From assembly GCF_902686445.1 (NCBI RefSeq), contig NC_062220.1, positions 113,570,643 to 113,634,642 of the forward strand: DNA of 64,000 bases, written 5' to 3'. Below are positions 20,480 through 59,712 of the stretch, in pieces. The translations under genes and the position numbers were made by a program. Below the pieces are notes generated by a model. It was not told where the DNA came from. It ran no database searches and saw nothing but the letters and a program-made list of their open reading frames with translations. Numbering within the stretch: position 1 is the stretch's first letter; every line of letters starts with the position of its first letter. The DNA comes from Sciurus carolinensis. Taxonomy: Eukaryota; Chordata; Mammalia; Rodentia; Sciuridae.

Positions 20480-21110
20480 TAGCATTTTAAAAATTGTGGG
20501 TGTTGTGGCTTGAATTTTGGTTTTCCCTTATGACATTTGTGTATGAATGGGTCATTTGAATTCCCTCTACTAAGAAACATTCAAATTTTTTATTTTTTAA
20601 AATTATTTTATGTGCTGATTTGTAAGCATTTTTTTTTTTTAACTTTGAATATCCTTTGGTTATATGTGCTGGAAAAACTCAGATCTTACATTTCTTTTTA
20701 CTCTCTTCATGGGATTTTTTGGTTTACTGAAGTTAACAGTTAAGGGTAATAGAATCTCTCACTTTTTCTATTTATTATTTGTGATTTTTGCATCTCATTT
20801 AAGAGACATAATTTTATTCTGTTGTCATAAAGATACTCTTCTGATTTACCTTTGGGAAATGTATAGTGTGTGTCACACTCTCTTATTTCATTTGTTCTTT
20901 TTAGATATACAGGCAGTAGAACGTACAGTATATAACTTACTCTAATTAGGATTCCATCCTTGTGTTCATACGAGATGTGTAGTTTCACTGGTGGTGTATT
21001 CATACATGAACAGAGGAAAGTTTTGTCTTTTATGTTGACTTTCTTTGATTCATACAGATGAGATTGGGAATATATGTGAGGATCTAGTTTTTTTATGAAA
21101 TATTTGGCTT
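20480..21110 (-). repeat. Old L1 relic (antisense)
   Basis: Segments such as 'tgcatctcatttaagagac' and 'gttgtcataaagatactctt' resemble antisense old L1. The region is AT-rich and forms the left flank of the provirus. Confidence 0.45.
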
Positions 21111-21213
21111 GTTTCATTTATTGTTTTCCACACTGGCATGAATGTAATTGATCATTGATCAGATCCATAACAGAGAAAAGGGAAACAGGAGTCTCCCAGC
21201 AACCCCATCAATA

Positions 21214-21219
21214 ACATGG
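21214..21219. other. Target-site duplication, left (ACATGG)
   Basis: The six bases immediately before the 5' LTR are repeated at 27,662-27,667 immediately after the 3' LTR. Intact duplication shows that the provirus has not recombined with another copy since insertion. Confidence 0.93.
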
Positions 21220-21600
21220 TGTCGGGGTACTGCAGGCCCCCAGCCCTTCGGCGTGGCCAAGATGGCGCCTGGCAAGGTGCCAAGGAAGTGCTGAGAACAA
21301 AACCAGGTACCTCCAGCAGACTAATACTCTCTGCCAACAAGTGGCGTATTTTGAGGAAGTTAATGTGATTGGCCATGGGTCCTCGTGGACACTGCATGAT
21401 TGCTATATCCACACTATTGTGCTCCATTACTGTCCATGCTTTCCCCTCGTGATCTATAAGCTGATTGGTTGTTGTATGTAATGTAAGGCGCTTGCAAGAG
21501 CGGCCCGCCGCTGCTGGCCAGCCAGAAGAAGCAGACTGCAGAAAATAAAGAACTTGCCCTGATCCGGTTTCGTGTTTCTCTGCGGGCAGGGGACGCGATA
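21220..21600 (+). repeat. 5' LTR of the provirus
   Basis: 381 bp from TGTCG to CGATA, an imperfect terminal inverted repeat. It contains a possible YY1-type site 'ccaagatggcgcc' at about 21,257-21,269, reversed CCAAT boxes ('gattgg') at about 21,370 and 21,463, a TATA-like 'tataag' at 21,455-21,460 and the polyadenylation signal AATAAA at 21,544-21,549. It differs from the 3' LTR at one base (G here, A there, near position 21,596, in a CpG context). Confidence 0.95.
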
Positions 21601-21602
21601 GA

Positions 21603-21623
21603 TGGTGCCGAAACACCCGGAAC
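21603..21623 (+). promoter_or_regulatory. Primer binding site, tRNA-Phe-like
   Basis: TGGTGCCGAAACACCCGG begins two bases after the 5' LTR. It matches the complement of the 3' end of tRNA-Phe (TGGTGCCGAAACCCGGGA) except for a small shuffle around the C/G run. Mouse and hamster IAP elements also use tRNA-Phe, which supports the class II assignment. Confidence 0.8.
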
Positions 21624-21721
21624 AAGAAAAAATATAAGGGTAAGTTCACATAAGTTTTCAAATCAAGAAAAATTAGTTTGAGAGTTCAAAAGGTGAGACG
21701 TCTCGAGGTTCGCGGAGCAGC

Positions 21722-22117
21722 GACAATTCATTACAGGAGGTTCCCCAGCAGAGGGACAATTCATTACAGGAGGTTCCCCAGCAGAGGGACAATTCATTAC
21801 AGGAGGTTCCCCAGCAGAGGGACAATTCATTACAGGAGGTTCCCCAGCAGAGGGACAATTCATTACAGGAGGTTCCCCAGCAGAGGGACAATTCATTACA
21901 GGAGGTTCCCCAGCAGAGGGACAATTCATTACAGGAGGTTCCCCAGCAGAGGGACAATTCATTACAGGAGGTTCCCCAGCAGAGGGACAATTCATTACAG
22001 GAGGTTCCCCAGCAGAGGGACAATTCATCACAGGAGGTTCCCCAGCGGAGGGACAATTCATCATAAGAGGTTCCCCAGAGGAGGGACGATTCATCATAAA
22101 AGGTTCCCCGTGGGAGG
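21722..22117 (+). repeat. 33-bp tandem repeat, twelve units, in the leader
   Basis: The unit begins 'gacaattcattacaggagg' and continues 'ttccccagcagagg' (33 bp). Nine units are nearly identical; the last three diverge (catcac/catcat, then GTGGGAGG), and a partial thirteenth begins at 22,118. Because 33 is a multiple of three and the unit lacks stops in several frames, long open frames appear on both strands; these are artefacts. The array sits between the primer site and gag, where packaging, dimerisation and splice-donor signals usually lie. Confidence 0.97.
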
Positions 22118-22250
22118 GACGATTCAAGTGGTACCAAACTGTGTGCGTGTGTGAGTGAGCGTGTGTGCGTGCGCGCGCCTGTCTTTTGTTTGTGTGTTTA
22201 AACTAGTAAACTACCTCGTAGTCGTGGGAACGGATCTGTCTAAGATTAGA

Positions 22251-22490
22251 ATGCAGCGGCCTCTTAGAGAACTTTTAAAAAAAAAAAATCACGGAACACC
22301 ATTGAAGGCAAACACGGCCTTCAAGTTCCTAGATACTGTAGAGAAAGTCTCTCCGTGGTTTTTAGACGAGGGATTATTAAATCTTCCTCAGTGGGAACAG
22401 CTAGGAGAGGATCTGCGTGACGCGGAGAGACGCGAGCCTTTGCCAATGGGAACTCTGGCAATATGGTCACTTGTTAATAATCTTGTTTGA
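22251..22490 (+). pseudogene. Truncated gag start (matrix-like), retroviral
   Basis: An ATG at 22,251 opens 79 codons in the expected place for gag. Recognisable features include a basic LLKKKN segment and the pattern FLDTVEKVSPWF...LPQWEQLGEDL, which resembles the N-terminal matrix region of betaretrovirus/IAP Gag. The frame ends in TGA at 22,488-22,490. Gag-like codons (QILEEIKEE) continue in another frame to about 22,615, indicating a frameshift. Nothing resembling capsid or nucleocapsid follows. An in-frame upstream ATG at 22,155 falls in TG-rich leader and is unlikely to be the start. Confidence 0.7.
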
Positions 22491-22619
22491 TGCAGCAAGG
22501 TAAATCAAAAAACCCTTTTTGGGATTTAAAGGGGCCTTTAGAAGAAGGAAGTCAGATCTTAGAAGAAATTAAAGAGGAACGATCATGTTCTCAGACTTCA
22601 GAAAGAGTGGGAACATAAT

Positions 22620-25530
22620 ATAGTAGCCATAGTCCCCACAAGTATTGGGAGATAATTGTTTCATGATTTTCTGCATTCAAACCTAATCTGATTTCTCAAC
22701 CAGGTAAAAAAAGGGTTAAAAAGTCCTGGGTGATCCTCCCTCCCCCCTGCCTGGCCTTGTCAAAGCCTACAATGGATTATAAATTACAACAGTCTTAGCG
22801 GGAAGGAGGAGGGGTAACCTGAAGAAAAGAAAAAAAAAAGGTGTCCGTTTTAAACTTAACTAACTTATTTTCTAGGATTCTTTGTTTGTTTTGTTTTTCT
22901 TTAATGCTGTATTTTTGAGCTCATAATTTTGATCCTACATACCTAGGTTAATGATTTTTTTCTTTTTGATCAGTTCTATTTTTTATTCAACTGAAGTTTT
23001 TAAACATCTGTTTCATTGCAATGAACATTTACCTATAAAGTTACAAGGCCTTTGATTTTATGTTATCTGTATGTCGTGCTGTCTAATGTCATATTTTGTC
23101 AAAACTGAGCGCTCTTAAAATTAAAATTTAAAAATGGATCCAAATACTTTTATTCACGTGATTTAAAAAGGTTCAATTTATATTGGGTAAACTAATAAAA
23201 GTAAAATATCTTTGAAAATAACTTACAAGTCTCCAGGTGGTCAAACTAATGAAATGTTATTGTTAAACAATGTCTAATATCAATTGCTTCTAGGACTTTT
23301 CTTCAGCAGGAAAGAGGCAACGGATCCTGTTCAGGACACTTGTCTGATATCTTGGTTTTTATAAAATAAATAAATTGGAGTTAACATGTATGGGATTACT
23401 CAAATGTGTTTGTAGAGACGTCTGGTTAATTTACAAAGTTAAAATGCTAATTGTTAAATAACATCAAGTACTTTTAACTTCTTAAATTACATGGGGTATC
23501 ATACTTAAACATTCTTGGTGTTTTCATAGGTTGGTAAATAAAAAGAAAAAGGAAATGTTTCTGAGTAAGAAAGTCTGTGTGTAAGTAAAGGACAAGTTTC
23601 AACAAGTCTCTTAAGTTTTATTCTTTAGAACAATTAGTCTTAAAAATTGGGGTGTATACAATTATGGTTAAACAACTGTTAAAGTATTGTACTGTGTTAC
23701 AGAGTCTAAATTTTTCTTTAAAAACTAAATTTGGTAAGAAAAAAAGGTGTCAAGGTAATTGTGAAATGGTTTCTAGTTGTATATTAAATGTGTTCATATT
23801 TTTCAGGTATACAAGTTTTAAAGCAGAAAATTTATCAAGCTGCTATTCTCCAGATAAACTTGTCTGTAATGGTAATTTTAAGCTTATAAAGAGTAAATTT
23901 CATTGGGGATTAATTTCTATCATTTAGTGTTCTATTAGAGGACCTGTTATCAATAGGATATATATAAAATTGGTTATATTTTACATTGAGATAAAAAATT
24001 TCAAATGTAAATGTATTTCTAAACATTAGAGCCTGACTTGTTTAAAGGTTAATTTTGTGAAACATGAAAATATTTTGCCACTTTGACACACAAAAGGAAA
24101 GTTAAAAGCTCTCTCAGCCTTTCTTTGATTCATGTTTTAGATACAATGTTAAATTGTGTTAATTATAAAGTTTGTATAGACTCAGGAAACAGTATATATA
24201 AACTACTTAATGATATTTAAGGAAGAAGCAAAGATCAACATCAGAATTAGAACACTTAAGATCTATAAAGAGTCACGCCTTACCTGAGATAAGGCTCTCC
24301 CTCTCACCTTACTACATGTTAGAGTGACTCCAAAATAAGTCAGACTTCAGCTTATTTAAAGTTATAATCAAAAGATTGGTTCTTGTTGTAAAATTACTAT
24401 GATCTCAAATAGGAAATATAATGTGGTTCTCAGTCAAAATTCAAGATAGCTATTATACAAGCAGAATATATTTTTACTCTTGCTAATTTCATTTTATAAA
24501 ACTGTTACCTGTTAATGTTTTGCAGAAGTAGCTGCTTCAAGTACATGCAACCTAGGTAACTTATGATAATAAGCCATCACCTATAGAACAGATAGTGGTA
24601 ACTTCCAGAACTAATGCAGACTCCAGTTAGATAAAAGGGTAAATAACTGTAAAGTTATGAACATTAAAGTTAAAGCCCAGTACTCTCACTCTATGACTGG
24701 TAAAACTGGCTTGCTGGATGATTAAGATCAAACTTAGAGATTGGAATTAAATACAGAAGGCAAGATAGGCCAGTATTTGGATCTTTTGCCCTCAGTCAGC
24801 CTGAACCCAGGGAATAAGAGGACTTCTCTAAGGAGTGCTGCAACTCTGGGTCACACAACCTCCTGATCAAGGAGATTGTTGAGACTAGAGGATCCTGGAC
24901 ACCCAGCAAAACAGTAAAAACCAAAATATAGCCATTCTTGGGCATTTAAGAGAAATAATAATTAAATATAACTTAAGATGTACACTTATGTTAGTCCACT
25001 AGAATAAAGACTGGAAGCTACAAATGAAAAAAAGATTCTTCAGCAAATGTGCCTGATAACAATCAAGAGAAACTGCCAGAGTCAGAAGTTTTTAGTCAGT
25101 TTAAGGCCTACAGATCTTCCTAAGCTACACAGGTAGACTTAATCTATGTTTGCTCGTATGATTACCTAGCCCTAAGTAACAGAAATATAGAGCTCTCTAC
25201 TAAACACAGGTTATACCAATAAAGGGATATTTTACACAATCAGATGACTTAAGTAGCTTAACTATATTTTTTGGGATATCTATGACATTAAGAGTTAAAT
25301 GTTGTGTTTACATTCCTGATAACCTGGACTATGTTAAAGTTCCCAAATAAAGGCCTTGTCCTTTCCAGCCTTTGCTAGGTCTAGTTATGGGAACAATTTC
25401 TCAGTTCTTCCACCTCCTGGTGAAAGATTGACTTCTGTCATTTTCATGATACTCAGTGGCATGTTCCAGATGCTGCAACATTTACTTTGTACTAATTTCA
25501 TTTCAGTACTCATGTCTTTTTGTTCTTCTA
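22620..25530 (+). other. Non-coding interior of the provirus
   Basis: About 2.9 kb of AT-rich sequence with stops in all frames, where pro and pol would normally lie. I recognise no DTG/DSG protease motif, YxDD motif or integrase zinc finger. The longest frame (23,652-23,927, 91 codons) shows no family signature. Position and lack of coding content recall the non-coding interiors of VL30 and ETn elements. Near 25,500-25,531 a pyrimidine-rich 'tttttgttcttctatcatag' could be a splice acceptor. Confidence 0.7.
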
Positions 25531-25725
25531 TCATAGAAGCACCCACCCCCAGATGACTTTACAACCTGCTCCTCCCCAACCAGACTTCTACCTCGGACCC
25601 CTCGATTGACCCGATTTTTAAAAAAGGAACTCCAAACTGCTTGCCCCTCACTGCCCCCTTTCAGCTTCGAAGCAGCCAGAACGACCGACGCCCCCTTTTC
25701 CTTGAAGCAGTTGGGAGTTCCTATA

Positions 25726-25880
25726 GCTAAAGCGGGGAATGAAGCCAGAATTAAGGACAGGTAGTTAGTGTAGAAATAGGGAATCGGGTCAATTCGAGGA
25801 AATGAAGCCATGAAGCCATCTGCCTTTACAAATGTCAAGGATCTCCGGAGCCCATTGATTACCAAATTTACCTGCCTATA
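25726..25880 (+). other. Gamma-type polypurine tract plus U3 fragment inside the provirus
   Basis: 'gctaaagcggggaa' (ending 25,739) followed by TGAAGCCAGAATT looks like a gammaretrovirus polypurine tract joined to the first bases of an LTR. The next ~140 bp match the reverse complement of the solo LTR at 36,430-36,966 (shared 'gttagtgtagaaatag', 'atcgggtca', 'cccattgat', 'tttacctgcc'), with a short deletion. The fragment then stops. It is thus U3 sequence of an unrelated LTR family inside this element. Confidence 0.8.
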
Positions 25881-25977
25881 GGGGATGTAGGGTGCGCTCA
25901 CTTCTCGGGACTTTTGAAATATCAGCTTTCTCCCTGCCGGGAGAAGTCTGTATTATTCCCTTTAAACAATCCAAACT

Positions 25978-26085
25978 ATGGTCCTTACTCAACAGTACCA
26001 AATGATTAAACAAACTGATAACCGAGGCAGGATGGACAAATGGATATAAGATTCTATCCATGATAAACAAAAAGGGGGAATAGAG
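25978..26085 (+). pseudogene. Gammaretrovirus-like Env C-terminal scrap and polypurine tract
   Basis: A short frame reads MVLTQQYQMIKQ before running to a stop, recalling the cytoplasmic tail end of gammaretrovirus Env. About 30 bases on, 'aaaaagggggaatag' is a polypurine tract. It lies downstream of the U3 fragment at 25,740, the reverse of normal order, so the gamma-derived pieces are rearranged. Short and diverged; inference. Confidence 0.5.
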
Positions 26086-26239
26086 GAGACCTTCAGGTCC
26101 CCTAAAGATAAACTTTCTCTTTGTCTCTTTGTTTGGGTTTTTTTTTTTTTTTAACTCTGGGTAATAAGGGTAACCCGGTGCTTTACTGGAGCTGCGGCTC
26201 AGTTTGTGTGTTTCCACGGAATAAACTAACTTACAACCT

Positions 26240-26363
26240 CTTTTTAGTCTCTTAGGAGGAACAGTTCAACTATGTAACAAAACAACTGCTTCTCTCAATT
26301 GTACTTCAGATTTGTGCTATCTCTCAATGTTAAAATGCTTCTAGGTTCCTGCTGGCAGACTTA
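26240..26363 (+). pseudogene. Remnant of Env surface subunit
   Basis: Between about 26,250 and 26,345 one frame reads cysteine- and N-glycosylation-rich residues (QLCNKTTASLNCTSDLC), plausible for the C-terminal part of a retroviral surface glycoprotein. It is not in frame with the transmembrane subunit that follows, and a stop intervenes. The rest of the surface subunit is absent. Confidence 0.45.
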
Positions 26364-27116
26364 ATGTGTGTTCCTACCTTCCTACCAGTCCCAGTCTCTG
26401 TTACAGATGATGAATTGCCAGTATTGCTTTCCAGAAATAAGAGGGACTTTGGAATCACCGTAGCAGTCATTACCACCATAGTTGCATCAGCAGCAGCAGT
26501 CGCCGCAGCAGCTGTAGCCTTGACGACATCAGTACAGTCAGCAACTAAGCTTAATGAAGTGGTCCAGCGGACAGCTACTGCTCTGTCTACTCAACAAACA
26601 GTGCATCAACACCTAAAAGCAGGACTACTTTTGGTGAACCAGCGTGTGGACTTACTTCAAGAACAAATGGACCTTTTACAAGAACTGTTAAGCGTGGGGT
26701 GTATTTATCATCTGCCGGGACTGTGCATTACACCTGTAGCTTATCATAATCTTAGTTATGCAGCAAATTTGTCTAAAATCATATCTACTCAGCTACGTGC
26801 CAATTGGTCTTATAAATTTGATAATCTTACTGCCATTCTTAGATCACAAATTGTTAGCCTTAATTCTACTAGAGTTAATGTAGCCCCTATATCTGAAATG
26901 CAAAATTGGTTATCTTCTTCCTTCAGTTTTGTAAAGCAATGGGCAGGAATGGGAGCATTGTGTGTGCTAATGATTATTGCAATTATCTTCCTCACACGCT
27001 TTATCATGCGTATACACCAAGTTCATGCCAGAGATCGCATCATTTTCCATCAAGCCCTGATGGCCTTAGAGGCTGGCAGCTCTCCTCAAGTCTGGCTGAG
27101 CATGCTGGATCGGTAG
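26364..27116 (+). CDS. env: Retroviral Env transmembrane subunit, open frame, no surface subunit
   Basis: 250 codons. A furin-type cleavage motif RNKR lies at about residue 28, followed by an Ala/Val-rich fusion-peptide-like segment, a heptad helical region, a C-X7-C loop (CIYHLPGLC) followed by ITP as in HERV-K/betaretrovirus TM proteins, several N-x-S/T sites, a second helical region, a tryptophan-rich pre-membrane stretch (near MQNWL...FVKQW), a membrane anchor around ALCVLMIIAIIFL, and a short cytoplasmic tail. It lacks the CX6CC of gammaretrovirus TM, so it belongs to the class II lineage. With no receptor-binding subunit and no signal peptide it should not act as a normal envelope. The open frame may simply reflect the element's youth. 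Confidence 0.85.
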   Translation: MCVPTFLPVPVSVTDDELPVLLSRNKRDFGITVAVITTIVASAAAVAAAAVALTTSVQSATKLNEVVQRTATALSTQQTVHQHLKAGLLLVNQRVDLLQEQMDLLQELLSVGCIYHLPGLCITPVAYHNLSYAANLSKIISTQLRANWSYKFDNLTAILRSQIVSLNSTRVNVAPISEMQNWLSSSFSFVKQWAGMGALCVLMIIAIIFLTRFIMRIHQVHARDRIIFHQALMALEAGSSPQVWLSMLDR

Positions 27117-27119
27117 TCA

Positions 27120-27236
27120 ACGACAGGTAAGGAAGGAGGTAACCGCGTACCGACCTAAGACAGGAGCTGTAGCATGCTCTACAGTTATCCGATGACGGGT
27201 AAGGACGATGGTTGACCACTCCGCCTAAGACAGGCA
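27120..27236 (+). promoter_or_regulatory. CTE-like RNA export element
   Basis: Four motifs are arranged symmetrically: gacaggtaagga (27,122-27,133), cctaagacagg (27,154-27,164), gacgggtaagga (27,194-27,205) and cctaagacagg (27,224-27,234). First pairs with fourth and second with third about one centre near 27,178, where CTGTAG/CTACAG closes an apical loop. This is the plan of the constitutive transport element of Mason-Pfizer-type retroviruses, whose two internal loops bind NXF1/TAP to export unspliced RNA. Its place between env and the 3' LTR is also the same. Folding was judged by eye. Confidence 0.8.
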
Positions 27237-27264
27237 CGATCCCAAGCCAGCATTCTTTTAATAA

Positions 27265-27280
27265 ATAAAAAAGGGGGAGC
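27265..27280 (+). promoter_or_regulatory. Polypurine tract
   Basis: 'ataaaaaagggggagc' lies directly before the 3' LTR and would prime plus-strand DNA synthesis. Confidence 0.9.
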
Positions 27281-27661
27281 TGTCGGGGTACTGCAGGCCC
27301 CCAGCCCTTCGGCGTGGCCAAGATGGCGCCTGGCAAGGTGCCAAGGAAGTGCTGAGAACAAAACCAGGTACCTCCAGCAGACTAATACTCTCTGCCAACA
27401 AGTGGCGTATTTTGAGGAAGTTAATGTGATTGGCCATGGGTCCTCGTGGACACTGCATGATTGCTATATCCACACTATTGTGCTCCATTACTGTCCATGC
27501 TTTCCCCTCGTGATCTATAAGCTGATTGGTTGTTGTATGTAATGTAAGGCGCTTGCAAGAGCGGCCCGCCGCTGCTGGCCAGCCAGAAGAAGCAGACTGC
27601 AGAAAATAAAGAACTTGCCCTGATCCGGTTTCGTGTTTCTCTGCGGGCAGGGGACACGATA
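27281..27661 (+). repeat. 3' LTR of the provirus
   Basis: 381 bp, same ends and signals as the 5' LTR, one base different. The target duplication follows at 27,662-27,667. Confidence 0.95.
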
Positions 27662-27667
27662 ACATGG

Positions 27668-28945
27668 GTACCTGAACTTCCTGCTGTTGGTGAATGTAAG
27701 TGCCCTGCACAGGTTCCAGGTGCACCCGTGGCCACCTACCTAAGCCCACTGGGATGGGCACACATTCAGTTGGAGACTGAGAGCTACCCCCTCCACTTCT
27801 GAGTGGGCTGCAGTGCACCCAGGCTCAGTGGAGTGCACCTCAATTTCTGTCCCATGAAGACTGGGTAAGTTTCTGCCCCTGCTCCTGCTGGGCAAACAAA
27901 TGATACCCACTACATGACCTGAGGTGCCCCACAACCAGCTGACCTGTGGATGTTCTCGGCATTGAAATTACAATATGAAATTTGAATATCATTCACCCCA
28001 ACACCCAAATCTCTTTAATATTCAAAAATTTTGAATTCAACAAGATAGTACAAATGGATAATTCCAGACCTGGCCTTGTGTGACGGACGGGTCAGGTAAA
28101 AATGCCAGCATATCAAAAATCATCCTACATATTTAATTTTAGAATGTGCTTGTGGAAACCAGTGGATTCATACCATTGGCTTTACATATGATGAATCTGA
28201 GATTCCAAGAAAGGAGATGATGTAGTTCACACACCACGTAGATACTGAAGCCAGAGTTAGAATTCTGGCTGCTGAGGGTTTCCTCTATTCAATTACATGA
28301 GACCATTCCTTTCCGAAACTGTTTCTCATCCTTCCATTAGAACACAGTCGTCTTTTCACTGGCCCTAAGACAACTGGCTCACAGCACTTTCTGACACATA
28401 ATCATATTTTCTCTTATGATTTAGCTGAGCCTGTCTGACTTGGGACCTCCACTTCCTTTGTAAGCCCCAGGGACCTGAGCCATAGCAATCTTTTGTAATT
28501 CCCCCAGCACAACATCTTGTGTGCAATAAAAATATTTACTTATAATTATTATTAAATAATAAGTCAACTGCAAGTTATACCTCTGAGGAAGCCTTGGAAA
28601 TTGAGCACACAAGTGTACCAATTTTGTAAGGCATAATTTTTATCACAGTATTATCTCAGACAGCAGAAGGAATCTGACTTCACTTTTCTATATACATATG
28701 AGTATCTTAGTGAATCTCAACCACCATTTATATCCACAAGAGTCTTACTAAAAAAAACTAAAAGAAAAATAGCAGAAAGTTCAGTGGAGTAGAGAGGGGA
28801 AGGTAAGTGCAGGACAGAGAAGGAAAGGGAAAGGGGAGTTCTGAGGACTAAATTAGTGCGAATTATATTCCATGCTTTTGTAATTATGTCAAAATAAATC
28901 CTACTGTTGTGTATAAATACAAAGAAACATTTTAAAACACTTTAC
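27668..28945. other. No gene recognised
   Basis: The first 290 bp after the provirus are GC-balanced and unassigned; the rest is AT-rich. A weak MIR-like trace occurs near 28,190-28,280 ('tgaagccagagttagaattctggct'). Confidence 0.4.
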
Positions 28946-36429: not shown

Positions 36430-36966
36430 TGATACCGCTTTTTACCCGGTGACGAGTCCTGCTTCCTCAGGTGTTGAAGTATAACGCCGGAGAAGCACGC
36501 CGAGGCAAATGTAGAGTGGAAAATGCAGCTTTATTAAAGAAAAGGAAAAGCAGACTTCTCCCGGGTGGAAGAAGGGGACCCAAAGGCGGAATCCGTGGGA
36601 TGAGCAAATCTCGTTCTTTTTATGGGTTTCATTCTCCCATTCTTTCCCCTTATCTCTTCCCTTCCTGCCTGCGGGATTAGGCCTGGTTTTGAAATGTAAA
36701 AAGCGAAAAGCGGATGGGGCAGAGGGAGGGTCAAGGTGTCTCAGACAGGCAAGGGCCCAGGGGGCATTGATTAGCACCTTCTTGCCTGTAGTCTCTGACA
36801 AGGGCAGGTAAATCTGGTTATCAATGGGTTCTGCAGGTCCTTGACATTCCATTCTCCCATTGCAGTCTCCAACTTCCAGAGGCAGATGACTTGATGGCCT
36901 CTATTTTCTTGATCTGACCCGATTTCCTATTTCTACACTAACTGCCTGTCCCCAATTCTGGCTTCA
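36430..36966 (-). mobile_element. Gamma-type (ERV1) solo LTR, antisense
   Basis: Read on the minus strand it starts TGAAGCCAGAATT and ends GGTATCA (TG...CA, 537 bp). The polyadenylation signal in 'tttaataaagctgc' lies near plus-strand 36,530. It is flanked by ATAT on both sides (36,426-36,429 and 36,967-36,970), a 4-bp target duplication as expected for gammaretrovirus-like integrations, though ATAT is weak evidence in AT-rich DNA. Its U3 start is also found inside the provirus at 25,740-25,880. Confidence 0.75.
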
Positions 36967-37249: not shown

Positions 37250-37385
37250 TTAAAAAAATTGTAGTCGTAGATGGACACAATAACTTATTTCATTTATTTA
37301 TTTTTATGTGGTGCTGACGACTGAACCCAGTATCTCATGTGTGTTAGGTAAATGCTCTACCACAGAGCTTCAGCCTCAGCCCCTA
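37250..37385 (-). mobile_element. ID-like sciurid SINE (antisense)
   Basis: 'tagtcgtagatggacacaat' (reverse of the sciurid SINE tail) is followed by 'gctgacgactgaacccagta' and 'aaatgctctaccacagagct', the reversed B- and A-box regions. Confidence 0.85.
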
Positions 37386-37599: not shown

Positions 37600-37677
37600 C
37601 AGGGCTGGGGAGATAGCTCAGCTGGTACAGTGCTTGCCTCGCAAGCACAAGGCCCTGAGTTCGATCCCCAGTACCAC

Positions 37678-40240: not shown

Positions 40241-40399
40241 GATCGTTGCCTTGCTAATTCAAGGACGGAGGTTCATCCGGATCAACACTGTACATAAACC
40301 GATACTGCATTTTACACAAGAAACTGTGCTTCAGGGAGGCGGTGGGCTGCACCGTCCTGTCGTTGGATTTCTTTCCTCTTTCTCTCTTGGCTCCGGCAG

Positions 40400-41060
40400 T
40401 GGCCAGAGCAGCAGCTCAGAATGTCCTGGCCACCCGCTCGGTGCTCCACGTGCCCTGATGGCCCCGCCTGCCAGCCTGCGCCCGCGCCCAACGGCCACAG
40501 TGGGCGCCTGTCGCGAGCGCCTCCTCATAACGGCAGCGAGGGCACCGGGAGCCCAGCCAGGAGCCCAGCCTTACCGTGCCCAGGAGGCCAGCAAGGGAGA
40601 CCCAGGGACGCCACGAAGATGGTTGGCAAGCAGAGGATCCAGCTGGCCAAGAAGCACGGCAAGAACAGGATGTCCTGCAGCGCGGGTGGTCCCAAGACCT
40701 CGCAAAATGTGCCTGAAGGGAAGACGACAGTAAGACCCTGGTTATTGGCTCTTTTCATTTATTTTTCTGTCCGTGGCTCTTCAATTTTCCAGATTATTCA
40801 GAGTGTCAGGAAGGGCATGTGAAGTCACTTACCTTAAGATGTTTCCATTATGTGAATTTTAACTTGAACTCATTCCTGATGTTCTCCTGGTTAAAAACAA
40901 TTTACTGAAGCATCCTGCCTCAAAATGACTTCATATCATCCTTCATGTGTCAGTCCCAGGTTTTTTTCACGAGTCATTCCGGGGTTTCTAGTTAATACCA
41001 CAGTGCCTTGCAAAAAGCACCATATGAATAAAGCAATAAAATTCAATTGTTTATCGTAGT
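40400..41060 (+). pseudogene. SERP1 (RAMP4) retrocopy
   Basis: An intronless GC-rich block in AT-rich DNA: 5' UTR-like sequence, then a SERP1-like coding sequence (40,619-40,822), then AT-rich 3' UTR-like sequence with AATAAA at about 41,027 and 41,034. The true 3' end may lie further right, since SERP1 has a longer 3' UTR; the SINE at 41,826 could then be inserted in it. No convincing poly-A or target duplication was found. Confidence 0.75.
40619..40822 (+). CDS. Intact SERP1-like frame within the retrocopy
   Basis: 67 codons, against 66 residues for SERP1/RAMP4, the small tail-anchored ER protein that associates with the Sec61 translocon. Matching blocks are [13 protein letters not shown] (KQRI signature), [22 protein letters not shown] and [12 protein letters not shown] at the C-terminus. 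The start is the ATG that aligns with the family's own start; a longer upstream frame is 5' UTR read-through. There is an arginine in the membrane segment (near FSVRGSS), unusual for a tail anchor, and changes in the N-terminal half. The frame is open but I see no sign of selection; probably a retropseudogene that has not yet gained a stop. Confidence 0.7.
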
Positions 41061-49229: not shown

Positions 49230-52200
49230 TTGATACCTCTTTTCTTTTTTTTACAAGATTGACTTTGATTTTTATTTTAAAATACATTTAGCATAGAACT
49301 GTCAAAGGACCGAAAATAATTAAACTCAAAGAAATGGAATATTTTCAAATACTTTTTAAGTTGGACCTATAAATTAATAGGATAGCATAGACCCCAAAAT
49401 TAATTCATTAACTATACATTTTGAAAGAAAAGCTCTTTTCACATTTTCCAACACACTGTTAAGTTCTAAAGTTCCTTGGTTTCTTTTTAATAAAGAGCCC
49501 ACATTTAGTTGCTTTATTTAAAATTATCAAGTTCTGTTTTGGTAAAAGTTACCATGTTCCTAAATTCTCAATCAGAATTATAAAAATATGAGCTCAAAGT
49601 TATCTGGATTGATATTTCTGGATAATCATATAGATATTACACTAAAATCAGTAATCCCATACCTGATGTTCATTTATATGGAAAGTTCATTCTCTTCTTT
49701 ATGAATATCTTACTACAAATAAAATTATATTAATCTACTTACAATCACACTTGAAAATATAATGCACAGACAAAAAAAATAGTTACATACTATACCCAAA
49801 TTTTCCACTGTGAAAATAATAAAAAGTTGGAAAAATAATAGGATCTAAACAATTAATATTTATTATTTTTAGATTTTATAATTTATCTTAAGTTGTTGAT
49901 AAGTGAGTATTAAAAGTTAACTATTAATTTAAAAGATTGGGAAATCCAATCCTTTCCAAATTTAGAAAAATGGTTTTACATATGAAGCATTTGCACTGTC
50001 CCACCTATAAATTTCAACTATGTTCTGTTCACTGGAAATAGCTACCTGCAGTATAAACAATCAAGACAACAATGTGCAAAAAAAATATCTTCTTCCTATA
50101 AAAGAAAAATCTAAGAAAAATGGAAAATATTTATCCACTTAGCTTTCCAATAAATTAGTGAGAAATTTTAGCCCATTCCACATTTCTTTCTAAATAAAGG
50201 ACTAAAGGATTAAGGGTGGTTTAGTTCAATCCCTGTTAGTTTGACATATATTTTTAAAACAGTTGCCTGATTATAAGTAATTAAGATAGGATCAGTCTTT
50301 TATATCACAGTATACATGGCATTTCTTAATTCAGCAACAGAAAGGCACAATTAGCAAGCAATAAAATTCAGTACCTGAATTATTAAAGTGATGTACAAAA
50401 CAGTTGCAAAAACAATACATTCAACGCAGTGTAGAGAACTTAAAAAAAATAAGGAATCTAAAAAGTAATTTTTCTGAAAATTAGGTCCATTAAGAATGCC
50501 TCCCATGTTCAACATCATGGGTAACATGAAAGGTGATGGCAGTGTAAAAAGAGGCAGTAAATTAATATGTGGTAGCATATGAATTGTGGTATATTAATTA
50601 TGCAGTTCAATTAGGAAATGGCTCCCTAGTAAATAAATGTTAAATATATATGTTAATAACATACTTGTATTAATTTCAAATACACAGGCACAACTGTTTG
50701 CATATTGTTATTGATTTCATAATACACCTCAGTTTAAAAAAACTTAGGTATATTACTTTATATATAACATATTAGATATATAATTGCCTATTATGTACCT
50801 TAATATATACTACATATAACTTGAATCCATAACAGCACAGAACTCACCAAATATTACATGAACATTCTAAATAGATACTTATCATTTTCTCAGTACAGAA
50901 AGAGCTCAGCACACCTAAGACAAAATCTGGATGTGCAATGATAAAAATCACTGACTCTTAAGAATTTACTTAAATAATGATTTAAGTTAAATTCTTACAA
51001 AAGCCTAACTCTGATCTTTTATCTAGAGTATATTTTTAGGTATCAATAACTGATAACCTCTTTCTTATCACAAATATTATGTCCCTATCAAGAGATACCA
51101 ATAAAGAAAAATATGTAGGGAACCAAAAATGTGATGGAGAAACCCACCATTCCATAGGTAATATACCGGTAAGGAAGTTCAACTTCCATGTGCTGTCTTG
51201 CTTTTCCAATATCATCACATGGTATGTTGAAGATTTTACAGGTTAAAGGAATGGCGGTCTTTTTCATTACATCTCTGACGATCAGTACAAATATCATTCC
51301 CATGAGAATCCGCAATATGACTTTTCCAAACAGAGTCACAGTAACGGGGGGCCTAGGTAACGGTAGTATCTCTGAAGAAGGATCTAATAGTAGACCCACG
51401 CTATGAGCAACATGGAATCCACATGCAATTCCAGCACCACTTCCTAGAATCTCAGCTGTGTCTCCATAGGATGTGTTCCAGGTATCAAGAGTGAAAGGAA
51501 AGATCCCTAAAGCTAAATGAAGACCGATGATAATTAGTGGAGCATAGTTATACGTTTGATTGAAGTTGTCAATCAGGTCCACAAATGGATAGGAAACAGC
51601 TAAGATTAAAATGGTATATAGGAATGCAGCAATAATGTCCAGAATGGAGTGCATTCCCAGGTGCATTCTACTTAGGCAAACTAGAGAACACCAGCAGGGA
51701 ATAAGAAGCAGTCCACAAACAGGAGGATACTGCCAGCGGCCATAGGTGAGGAGGACCAGGGAAATGGGGATGGCGGTGCCGGACAGGGCGTGGCTGGAGG
51801 GCATGCTGTACTGGGAGTTGTAGAAGACCTCCAACTTGACACAGGAGGCGAGGAGGGTGGCGGCCAGCGGATGATGTCCTTGGTGCACTGGCCCAGGTAC
51901 ATGACCAGCACCCAGATGATCACCAGCCTGCGACCCAGTAGGGCGTCCAGGTTCCAGATCCAGAAAGGGAAGAACATGATGTAAGAGTCCGTAGCCCAAC
52001 TCGTGCCCAAGCAGAACAGGGAGGAGAGCGGCCAGTTGCTCTCGGGCCAGCTCGCCCTCCTCGCCCGCCAACGAGTTGCGTCACAGGGAGCCCGCGACGA
52101 GGCTGGGCCCAGCTCGCCGCCAGCCAGTTCTGTAAGCCATTAAGGGCGCCGCTGCGTCCGGCTTGACTGAGCGCTGACTGTGGTCGCTCCCTGGCGGCTG

Positions 52201-58593: not shown

Positions 58594-59712
<1,119 letters not shown>

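What the first reader, a model, noticed from the sequence alone, without database searches (positions are those of the whole stretch)
21220..27661. Very young, mosaic, apparently non-autonomous class II LTR retrotransposon
Seen: 381-bp LTRs with one difference, intact 6-bp target duplication, primer site and polypurine tract, but no recognisable pro or pol and only a stub of gag. Known: such elements (VL30, ETn) move using proteins of relatives. Inference: this represents a recently mobile non-autonomous family in squirrels, and the locus may be polymorphic for presence.
Basis: partly seen in the sequence, partly recalled or inferred. Interest (0 to 1): 0.85.

Follow-up and report, generated by a model that had tools for sequence, protein, structure and literature searches.

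The report
Young hitch-hiking retroelement family, mosaic core
This stretch belongs to a recently active family of retrovirus-like elements, found at some 325 places in one mammalian genome, that have lost their engine genes, carry borrowed DNA in the middle and are probably copied by proteins of related elements; it is a good new example of a known kind of genomic hitch-hiker.

Summary
In detail: a 6,442-bp element with 381-bp LTRs (one difference), a 6-bp target duplication, a tRNA-Phe-like primer site, a polypurine tract, a gag stub and no recognisable pro or pol. The middle (about 22.6-26.06 kb) is foreign. Segment 25.39-25.88 kb is the 3' end plus U3 start of a class I ERV; the AT-rich part before it is CpG-depleted like the surrounding genome. 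The family is real: a gag/interior junction pattern occurs at 325 places in the window's genome (control 0). Of 20 fetched copies (next most like this one at the 5' end), 19 have the same plan with two LTRs, 17 of 19 with perfect 6-bp duplications. LTR pairs differ at 22 of 7,620 bases, captured interiors by 2.4% on average. So the defective chimera itself was copied repeatedly, most likely in trans by tRNA-Phe-primed, IAP-like class II relatives, which are present with long open gag frames; one lineage shares its TG...TA ends. Polymorphism, the squirrel label, the helper and the source of the AT-rich part remain untested or unsolved. New member of a known kind (ETn; mouse ERV-beta4 Ednrb-s group).

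The parts
21214..21219 (.). left copy of 6-bp target-site duplication ACATGG
21220..21600 (+). 5' LTR, 381 bp, TG...TA ends, CpG o/e 0.60
   Evidence: 40 of 40 scored genome hits (869 first-look candidates) cover LTR, PBS and early leader at 99-100%
21603..21620 (+). tRNA-Phe-like primer binding site; against the canonical site it reads as carrying a 2-nt insertion; the same 18 nt in 20 of 20 fetched copies
21722..22117 (+). 33-bp tandem array in the leader (9 exact units, then 31/33, 28/33, 24/33); 4-17 units by motif count in the 20 fetched copies
22215..22600 (+). gag stub: matrix part (PF02337), then a frame-shifted tail; the initiator codon is lost in this copy (20 of 20 fetched copies keep one)
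22616..25300 (+). captured AT-rich segment without recognised coding sequence (31.5% GC, CpG o/e 0.14), source unknown
25387..25876 (+). captured class I ERV piece, sense orientation: last ~340 bp of an internal region (25387-25723) and start of a U3 (25740-25876)
26065..26114 (+). 50-bp patch 80% identical to a class II relative upstream of its env; class II sequence resumes at or before here
26191..26333 (+). C-terminal remnant of Env SU, frame broken; left edge approximate
26334..27116 (+). open Env TM frame, 260 codons (PF00517)
27264..27280 (+). polypurine tract next to the 3' LTR
   Evidence: sequence
27281..27661 (+). 3' LTR, 381 bp, AATAAA at 27605
27662..27667 (.). right copy of target-site duplication ACATGG

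Best explanation
A young copy of a non-autonomous class II ERV family, IAP-like in its tRNA-Phe-type primer site. The founder arose when most of gag, all of pro-pol (but for a possible 50-bp patch) and most of SU of a class II element were replaced by foreign sequence: an AT-rich stretch followed by the 3' end of a class I ERV in sense orientation, most simply by template switching between co-packaged RNAs during reverse transcription (inferred). The chimera kept what is needed in cis (LTRs, polyadenylation signal, primer site, leader, polypurine tract, LTR ends), and its RNA is packaged, reverse-transcribed and integrated by Gag-Pro-Pol of coding class II relatives (inferred). Shown: shared chimeric structure in 19 of 20 fetched copies, near-identical LTR pairs, separate target duplications, and relatives with open gag frames in the same genome.
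For: Junction pattern at 325 places, reversed control 0. 19 of 20 fetched copies have two LTRs and all seven other segments (94.1-99.6% identical to the window; coverage of single segments down to 66% where deleted); 17 of 19 have perfect 6-bp duplications. LTR-LTR 22/7,620 differences against 2.4% mean interior divergence over 190 pairs: the chimera predates these insertions. Interior indels shared by copies with different duplications show that variants propagate. No pol or protease in the pieces scanned. Relatives with long open gag frames, some with tRNA-Phe primer sites; one lineage has TG...TA ends, a 6-bp duplication, 71% TM and 88% 3'-end identity.
Against: No coding relative with the same LTR was found among 18 gag-bearing loci examined of 150 scored: 11 match the LTR only in blocks (68-92%), and 7 show no LTR match, but those stretches may not reach an LTR. 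So the helper is not identified. The 20 copies were chosen for likeness to this 5' end, which favours young ones. Two of 19 copies lack a clean duplication (L012 next to an N run, L025 mismatched near an N run). Trans-mobilisation was not observed directly.
Confidence: 0.9

Rival explanations
1. Single-locus deletion derivative: one autonomous provirus that lost its core after inserting here.
For: Only the gag start and Env end are recognised.
Against: 325 places carry the junction; 19 of 20 fetched copies have the same plan, 17 with their own perfect duplications.
Confidence: 0.02
2. Nested insertion: a class I element inserted into a class II provirus after integration, followed by deletions.
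For: The interior ends in class I sequence, and a class I provirus nested in another copy of this family does occur (L030/L033).
Against: No further direct repeat pair of 30 bp or more in 20500-28500 besides the LTRs and the leader array; class II sequence is replaced, not interrupted; the same junction recurs at 325 places. An ancient nesting in the founder is not excluded.
Confidence: 0.03
3. The whole foreign interior came as one piece from a non-coding class I element (VL30-like), not from host DNA plus a class I end.
For: The 3' end is class I and sense; another copy (L010) has further AT-rich sequence of the same kind.
Against: The AT-rich part has no significant match to the one class I copy examined (L037), and its CpG o/e 0.14 equals the median of the rest of the window, 0.13. 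Neither excludes an old class I element.
Confidence: 0.45
4. The lone TM frame is kept because a TM protein is useful to the element or host.
For: Open over 260 codons in 16 of 19 fetched copies that have it; two length changes are multiples of three.
Against: In the 18 sequences without length change (L015 and L024 dropped), shared polymorphisms are 13 of 22 non-synonymous against 15.1 expected (p 0.22) and singletons 28 of 40 against 27.5: no constraint detected.
Confidence: 0.07

Closest known systems
Mouse ERV-beta4 non-autonomous group (Ednrb-s element; PMC6466679, passages read)
   Same: Class II LTRs and 5'/3' internal ends, a middle without retroviral homology, presumed trans-mobilisation by coding relatives.
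   Different: 15-20 related sequences in the mouse reference genome against 325 junction places here; here part of the middle is recognisably class I. Relationship by sequence not tested.
Mouse ETn/MusD pair (PMC6466679, PMC7472051; passages)
   Same: Non-autonomous class II element copied by a coding relative.
   Different: ETn/MusD use tRNA-Lys; here the site is tRNA-Phe-like. ETn and MusD share LTRs; no same-LTR partner was found here among 18 loci examined.
Mouse IAP/IAPE (PMC7472051, passages; PMC3197615, listing and abstract start)
   Same: tRNA-Phe primer; altered primer sites also occur in active members; IAPE carries env.
   Different: This family lacks pro-pol and has a foreign core. 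A direct sequence comparison with mouse IAPE was not made.
Gunnison's prairie dog retrovirus (PMC7354474, outline and abstract, part 1 of 2 of Results)
   Same: Betaretrovirus-like, from a squirrel-family host.
   Different: 403-bp LTR bounded by CAAG/CTTG, tRNA-Gln primer, gag, pro, pol and env present. No sequence comparison made.
VL30 (mouse; PMC6466679 passages)
   Same: Non-autonomous, carried by helper proteins.
   Different: VL30 is class I; here gag and env are class II.

Membership tests
Class II (betaretrovirus-like) ERV | Betaretroviral matrix domain | tested here: met
   PF02337 E 2e-13; M-PMV and other matrix structures by sequence, best E 2e-7
Class II (betaretrovirus-like) ERV | 6-bp target duplication | tested here: met
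   Window and 17 of 19 two-LTR copies perfect
Class II (betaretrovirus-like) ERV | Class II pol phylogeny | not testable with these tools
   No pol recognised to place; filed by gag, env and 6-bp duplication only
IAP/IAPE group | tRNA-Phe primer site | tested here: inconclusive
   14 of 18 ungapped, same altered form in 20 of 20 copies; canonical form in relatives L050, L051
IAP/IAPE group | Sequence relationship to mouse IAP/IAPE | not tested
   No mouse IAP or IAPE sequence was compared; the 21 TM relatives include rodent and mustelid proteins at 35-58% identity
Non-autonomous trans-mobilised LTR family (ETn type) | Several independent copies of the same defective structure | tested here: met
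Non-autonomous trans-mobilised LTR family (ETn type) | Cis signals present | tested here: met
   LTRs and primer site in the window and fetched copies; polypurine tract in the window, the 3' end segment holding it in 19 of 20 copies
Non-autonomous trans-mobilised LTR family (ETn type) | Identified helper with matching LTR | tested here: inconclusive
   18 gag-bearing loci examined of 150 scored; LTR block matches in 11, none in 7 that may not reach an LTR; no same LTR
VL30 | Class I gag and LTR | tested here: not met
   Class II gag and env, 6-bp duplications; class I only in the captured piece

The most novel reading that the evidence does not exclude
The altered primer site, the same 18 nt in 20 of 20 fetched copies and the window, persists through many replication rounds because it matches a variant tRNA primer, or because it lets the element escape 3'-tRNA-fragment silencing that restrains relatives with canonical sites; the variable 33-bp leader array lies where packaging signals usually sit and may tune uptake by helper particles. 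The family would be a natural test of primer-site escape in a parasite-helper pair.
Probability: 0.15. Interest if true: 0.7.

Novelty: new member of a known kind. Interest (0 to 1): 0.45.

Why it matters
It is a very young, probably trans-copied family, with its junction at hundreds of places, whose chimeric core mixes class II and class I retroviral sequence. Such a family is a likely source of insertion polymorphism and a natural experiment in what an element needs in cis, and its altered primer site bears on tRNA-fragment control of retroelements. No paper describing it turned up in the listings of the open-access searches made; Repbase and Dfam were not available.

Tried and rejected
Post-insertion deletion and nested insertion at this locus: rejected. 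Selection on the TM frame: no signal. Structure in the leader repeats: no more stable than shuffles (z -0.20, -0.07, -0.30). Rfam: no match at gathering score in 21000-28000. TM structure prediction: low confidence (mean pLDDT 59.3), not used. Viral contigs: no TM or gag relative confirmed and no LTR or repeat pattern; prokaryote contigs: no LTR pattern. Other primer sites inside the interior: none above 30 shuffles for 12 recalled tRNAs. Other copies of the interior in the window: at E<=1e-3 only the 36.8-36.97 kb match; a laxer search was cut in print, and in the part seen the best hit (E 0.004) equals the shuffled control's best. My first LTR-pair count (20 of 7,616, six identical pairs) and duplication count (16 of 19) were mended, because the alignments of L023 and L024 had stopped two bases short. 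The source of the AT-rich part (query L010:2420-2660) and the empty site were asked but did not complete.
Full report
Observation. The element spans 21220-27661. Its 381-bp LTRs (21220-21600, 27281-27661) differ at one base, and ACATGG flanks both sides. The LTRs begin TG and end TA. A tRNA-Phe-like primer site starts at 21603, and a polypurine tract abuts the 3' LTR. The leader holds a 33-bp tandem array: nine exact units, then 31/33, 28/33 and 24/33. A betaretroviral matrix stub follows (PF02337, E 2e-13), with a frame-shifted tail still recognisable as gag against genomic relatives.

No pol. One search lists 51 stop-to-stop pieces of 33 aa or more overlapping 22480-26260, the gag stub among them. 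I scanned 34 of the other 50 against Pfam (25 of 27 plus-strand, 9 of 23 minus-strand). None matched reverse transcriptase, RNase H, integrase or protease at E<=1. The matches that did appear were weak and unrelated (the best TRIF-NTD, E 0.006, below its cut-off). One 50-bp patch (26065-26114) is 80% identical to a class II relative upstream of its env, so a short end of that region may remain.

Mosaic. Segment 25740-25876 matches 36803-36966 on the minus strand (score 159; maximum of 100 shuffles 38). That second place is a solo LTR of a different, abundant young family (of 41 matches reported, 40 are at 98-100% over at least 518 of 520 bp and one at 73%; 3,110 first-look candidates). Beside one of its LTRs lies an MLV-type integrase frame; its primer site equals the recalled tRNA-Gln complement and one provirus shows a 4-bp duplication (letters printed), so it is class I. 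Element 25387-25723 is 72% identical to the last 340 bp of that family's internal region (E 4e-41, one copy). A database protein (P0025) also matches the antisense of 25506-25802 at 63%. The class I piece therefore lies in sense orientation, internal end then U3. The AT-rich part (22640-25300) has no significant match in that class I copy. It has 9 CpG where 65.5 are expected (0.14). The rest of the window has a median of 0.13 (range 0.04-0.62) in 110 stretches; the LTRs have about 0.6, leader plus gag 0.56, env plus 3' end 0.47 and the class I-like part 0.39. This suggests DNA long resident in the genome before capture, whether host DNA or an old element.

Family. The window lies in an unnamed 2.815-Gb assembly. 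All 40 scored hits to LTR plus primer site plus early leader cover 481 of 481 bases at 99-100% (869 first-look candidates). A 36-nt pattern across the gag/interior junction occurs at 325 places with up to 3 mismatches; the reversed control has 0. Of the 20, 19 have two LTRs and every segment; one (L016) has only the 5' part. Length is 5,787-6,725 bp. Perfect 6-bp duplications occur in 17 of 19; the other two are L012 (next to an N run) and L025 (mismatch, near an N run). Two copies (L023, L027) have the same 6-bp duplication but different interior indels. The leader array has 4-17 units by motif count.

Dating. Over 20 LTR pairs, window included, there are 22 differences in 7,620 bases; 15 are CpG-type transitions and 4 pairs are identical. 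At recalled rates of 2.2-4.5e-9 per site per year this is about 0.3-0.7 My. It is probably an overestimate for these copies because of CpG, and it understates the family because of how copies were picked. Captured interiors of 19 copies and the window differ by 2.4% on average (0.4-4.7%, 190 pairs), with shared indels that define at least three groups and one 34-bp indel shared across groups, suggesting recombination. The chimera was thus copied repeatedly after losing its genes.

Helper. Gag_p24 gives 150 scored places out of 4,268 candidates, many with open frames of 500-660 codons. Of 18 such loci examined, 16 show a matrix match by tblastn (8 of 10, 8 of 8, one of these weak at 26%), up to 75% identity. 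Canonical tRNA-Phe sites are seen in L050 and L051 and a near-canonical one in L048. LTR-like blocks (68-92% identity) match in 11 of 18; the other 7 show none, but those stretches may not reach an LTR; none has the same LTR. One lineage (L050/L056) has LTRs starting TGTCGGGG or TGTTGGGG and ending AATA (5') and GATA (3'), and a 6-bp duplication; its env region matches the TM at 71% and its 3' end at 88%. Shared LTR ends make members of such a lineage plausible providers of integrase; this is inference. Both TA and CA ends occur in this family: L023 and L024 each have one LTR of each kind.

TM. The TM frame is open over 260 codons in 16 of the 19 fetched copies that have it and in the window. 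Polymorphism in the 18 sequences without length change shows no constraint, so youth explains it.

Primer site. All 20 fetched copies and the window share TGGTGCCGAAACACCCGG. PMC7472051 (passages) reports that active mouse ETn, MusD, IAPE and IAP elements tolerate 0, 2 or 3 primer-site changes or indels and raises evasion of tRNA fragments. Since reverse transcription tends to rewrite the site from the primer (established knowledge, not tested here), a fixed variant is worth explaining.

Compared with known systems. [quoted passage not shown] It is therefore a new member of a known kind. I found no description of this family in the listings of five searches of the held library.

Not settled: host identity (an ID-like SINE sequence at 37601 and tRNA-like SINE pieces at 37349 and 57340 fit a rodent; the link to squirrels is recalled, not tested), insertional polymorphism, helper identity, and the source of the AT-rich segment.

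Noticed in passing
36430-36966 (minus): Solo LTR (537 bp, 4-bp duplication ATAT, letters) of a very abundant young class I ERV family; 40 of 41 reported matches at 98-100%, 3,110 first-look candidates.
   Followed up: partly
L030 and L033 (G000:C620): A provirus of that class I family sits inside another copy of the family studied here, in its TM region: young-on-young nesting.
   Followed up: partly
G000:C11:19.3-31.2 Mb: 21 of the 100 junction places listed (of 325 counted) lie in this 12-Mb stretch; smaller clusters on C5 and C2. Could be insertion-tolerant or duplicated DNA.
   Followed up: no
21603-21620 and L009-L028: Primer site with the same departure from the tRNA-Phe complement in all 21 copies read, although reverse transcription should rewrite it.
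   Followed up: partly
L023, L024: Each has one LTR ending TA and one ending CA: both termini occur within one family and even one copy.
   Followed up: no
40298-40819 (+): Open frame with a RAMP4 (PF06624) match, E 1e-6, possibly a retrocopy.
   Followed up: no
51091-52080 (-), 58597-59226 (-): PAP2-superfamily and THEG4 frames; probable host genes near the insertion.
   Followed up: no
P0005: An Env-TM relative (47% identity) is filed under a chigger mite (Leptotrombidium deliense) on a 2.6-kb contig; perhaps DNA of the mite's vertebrate host.
   Followed up: no
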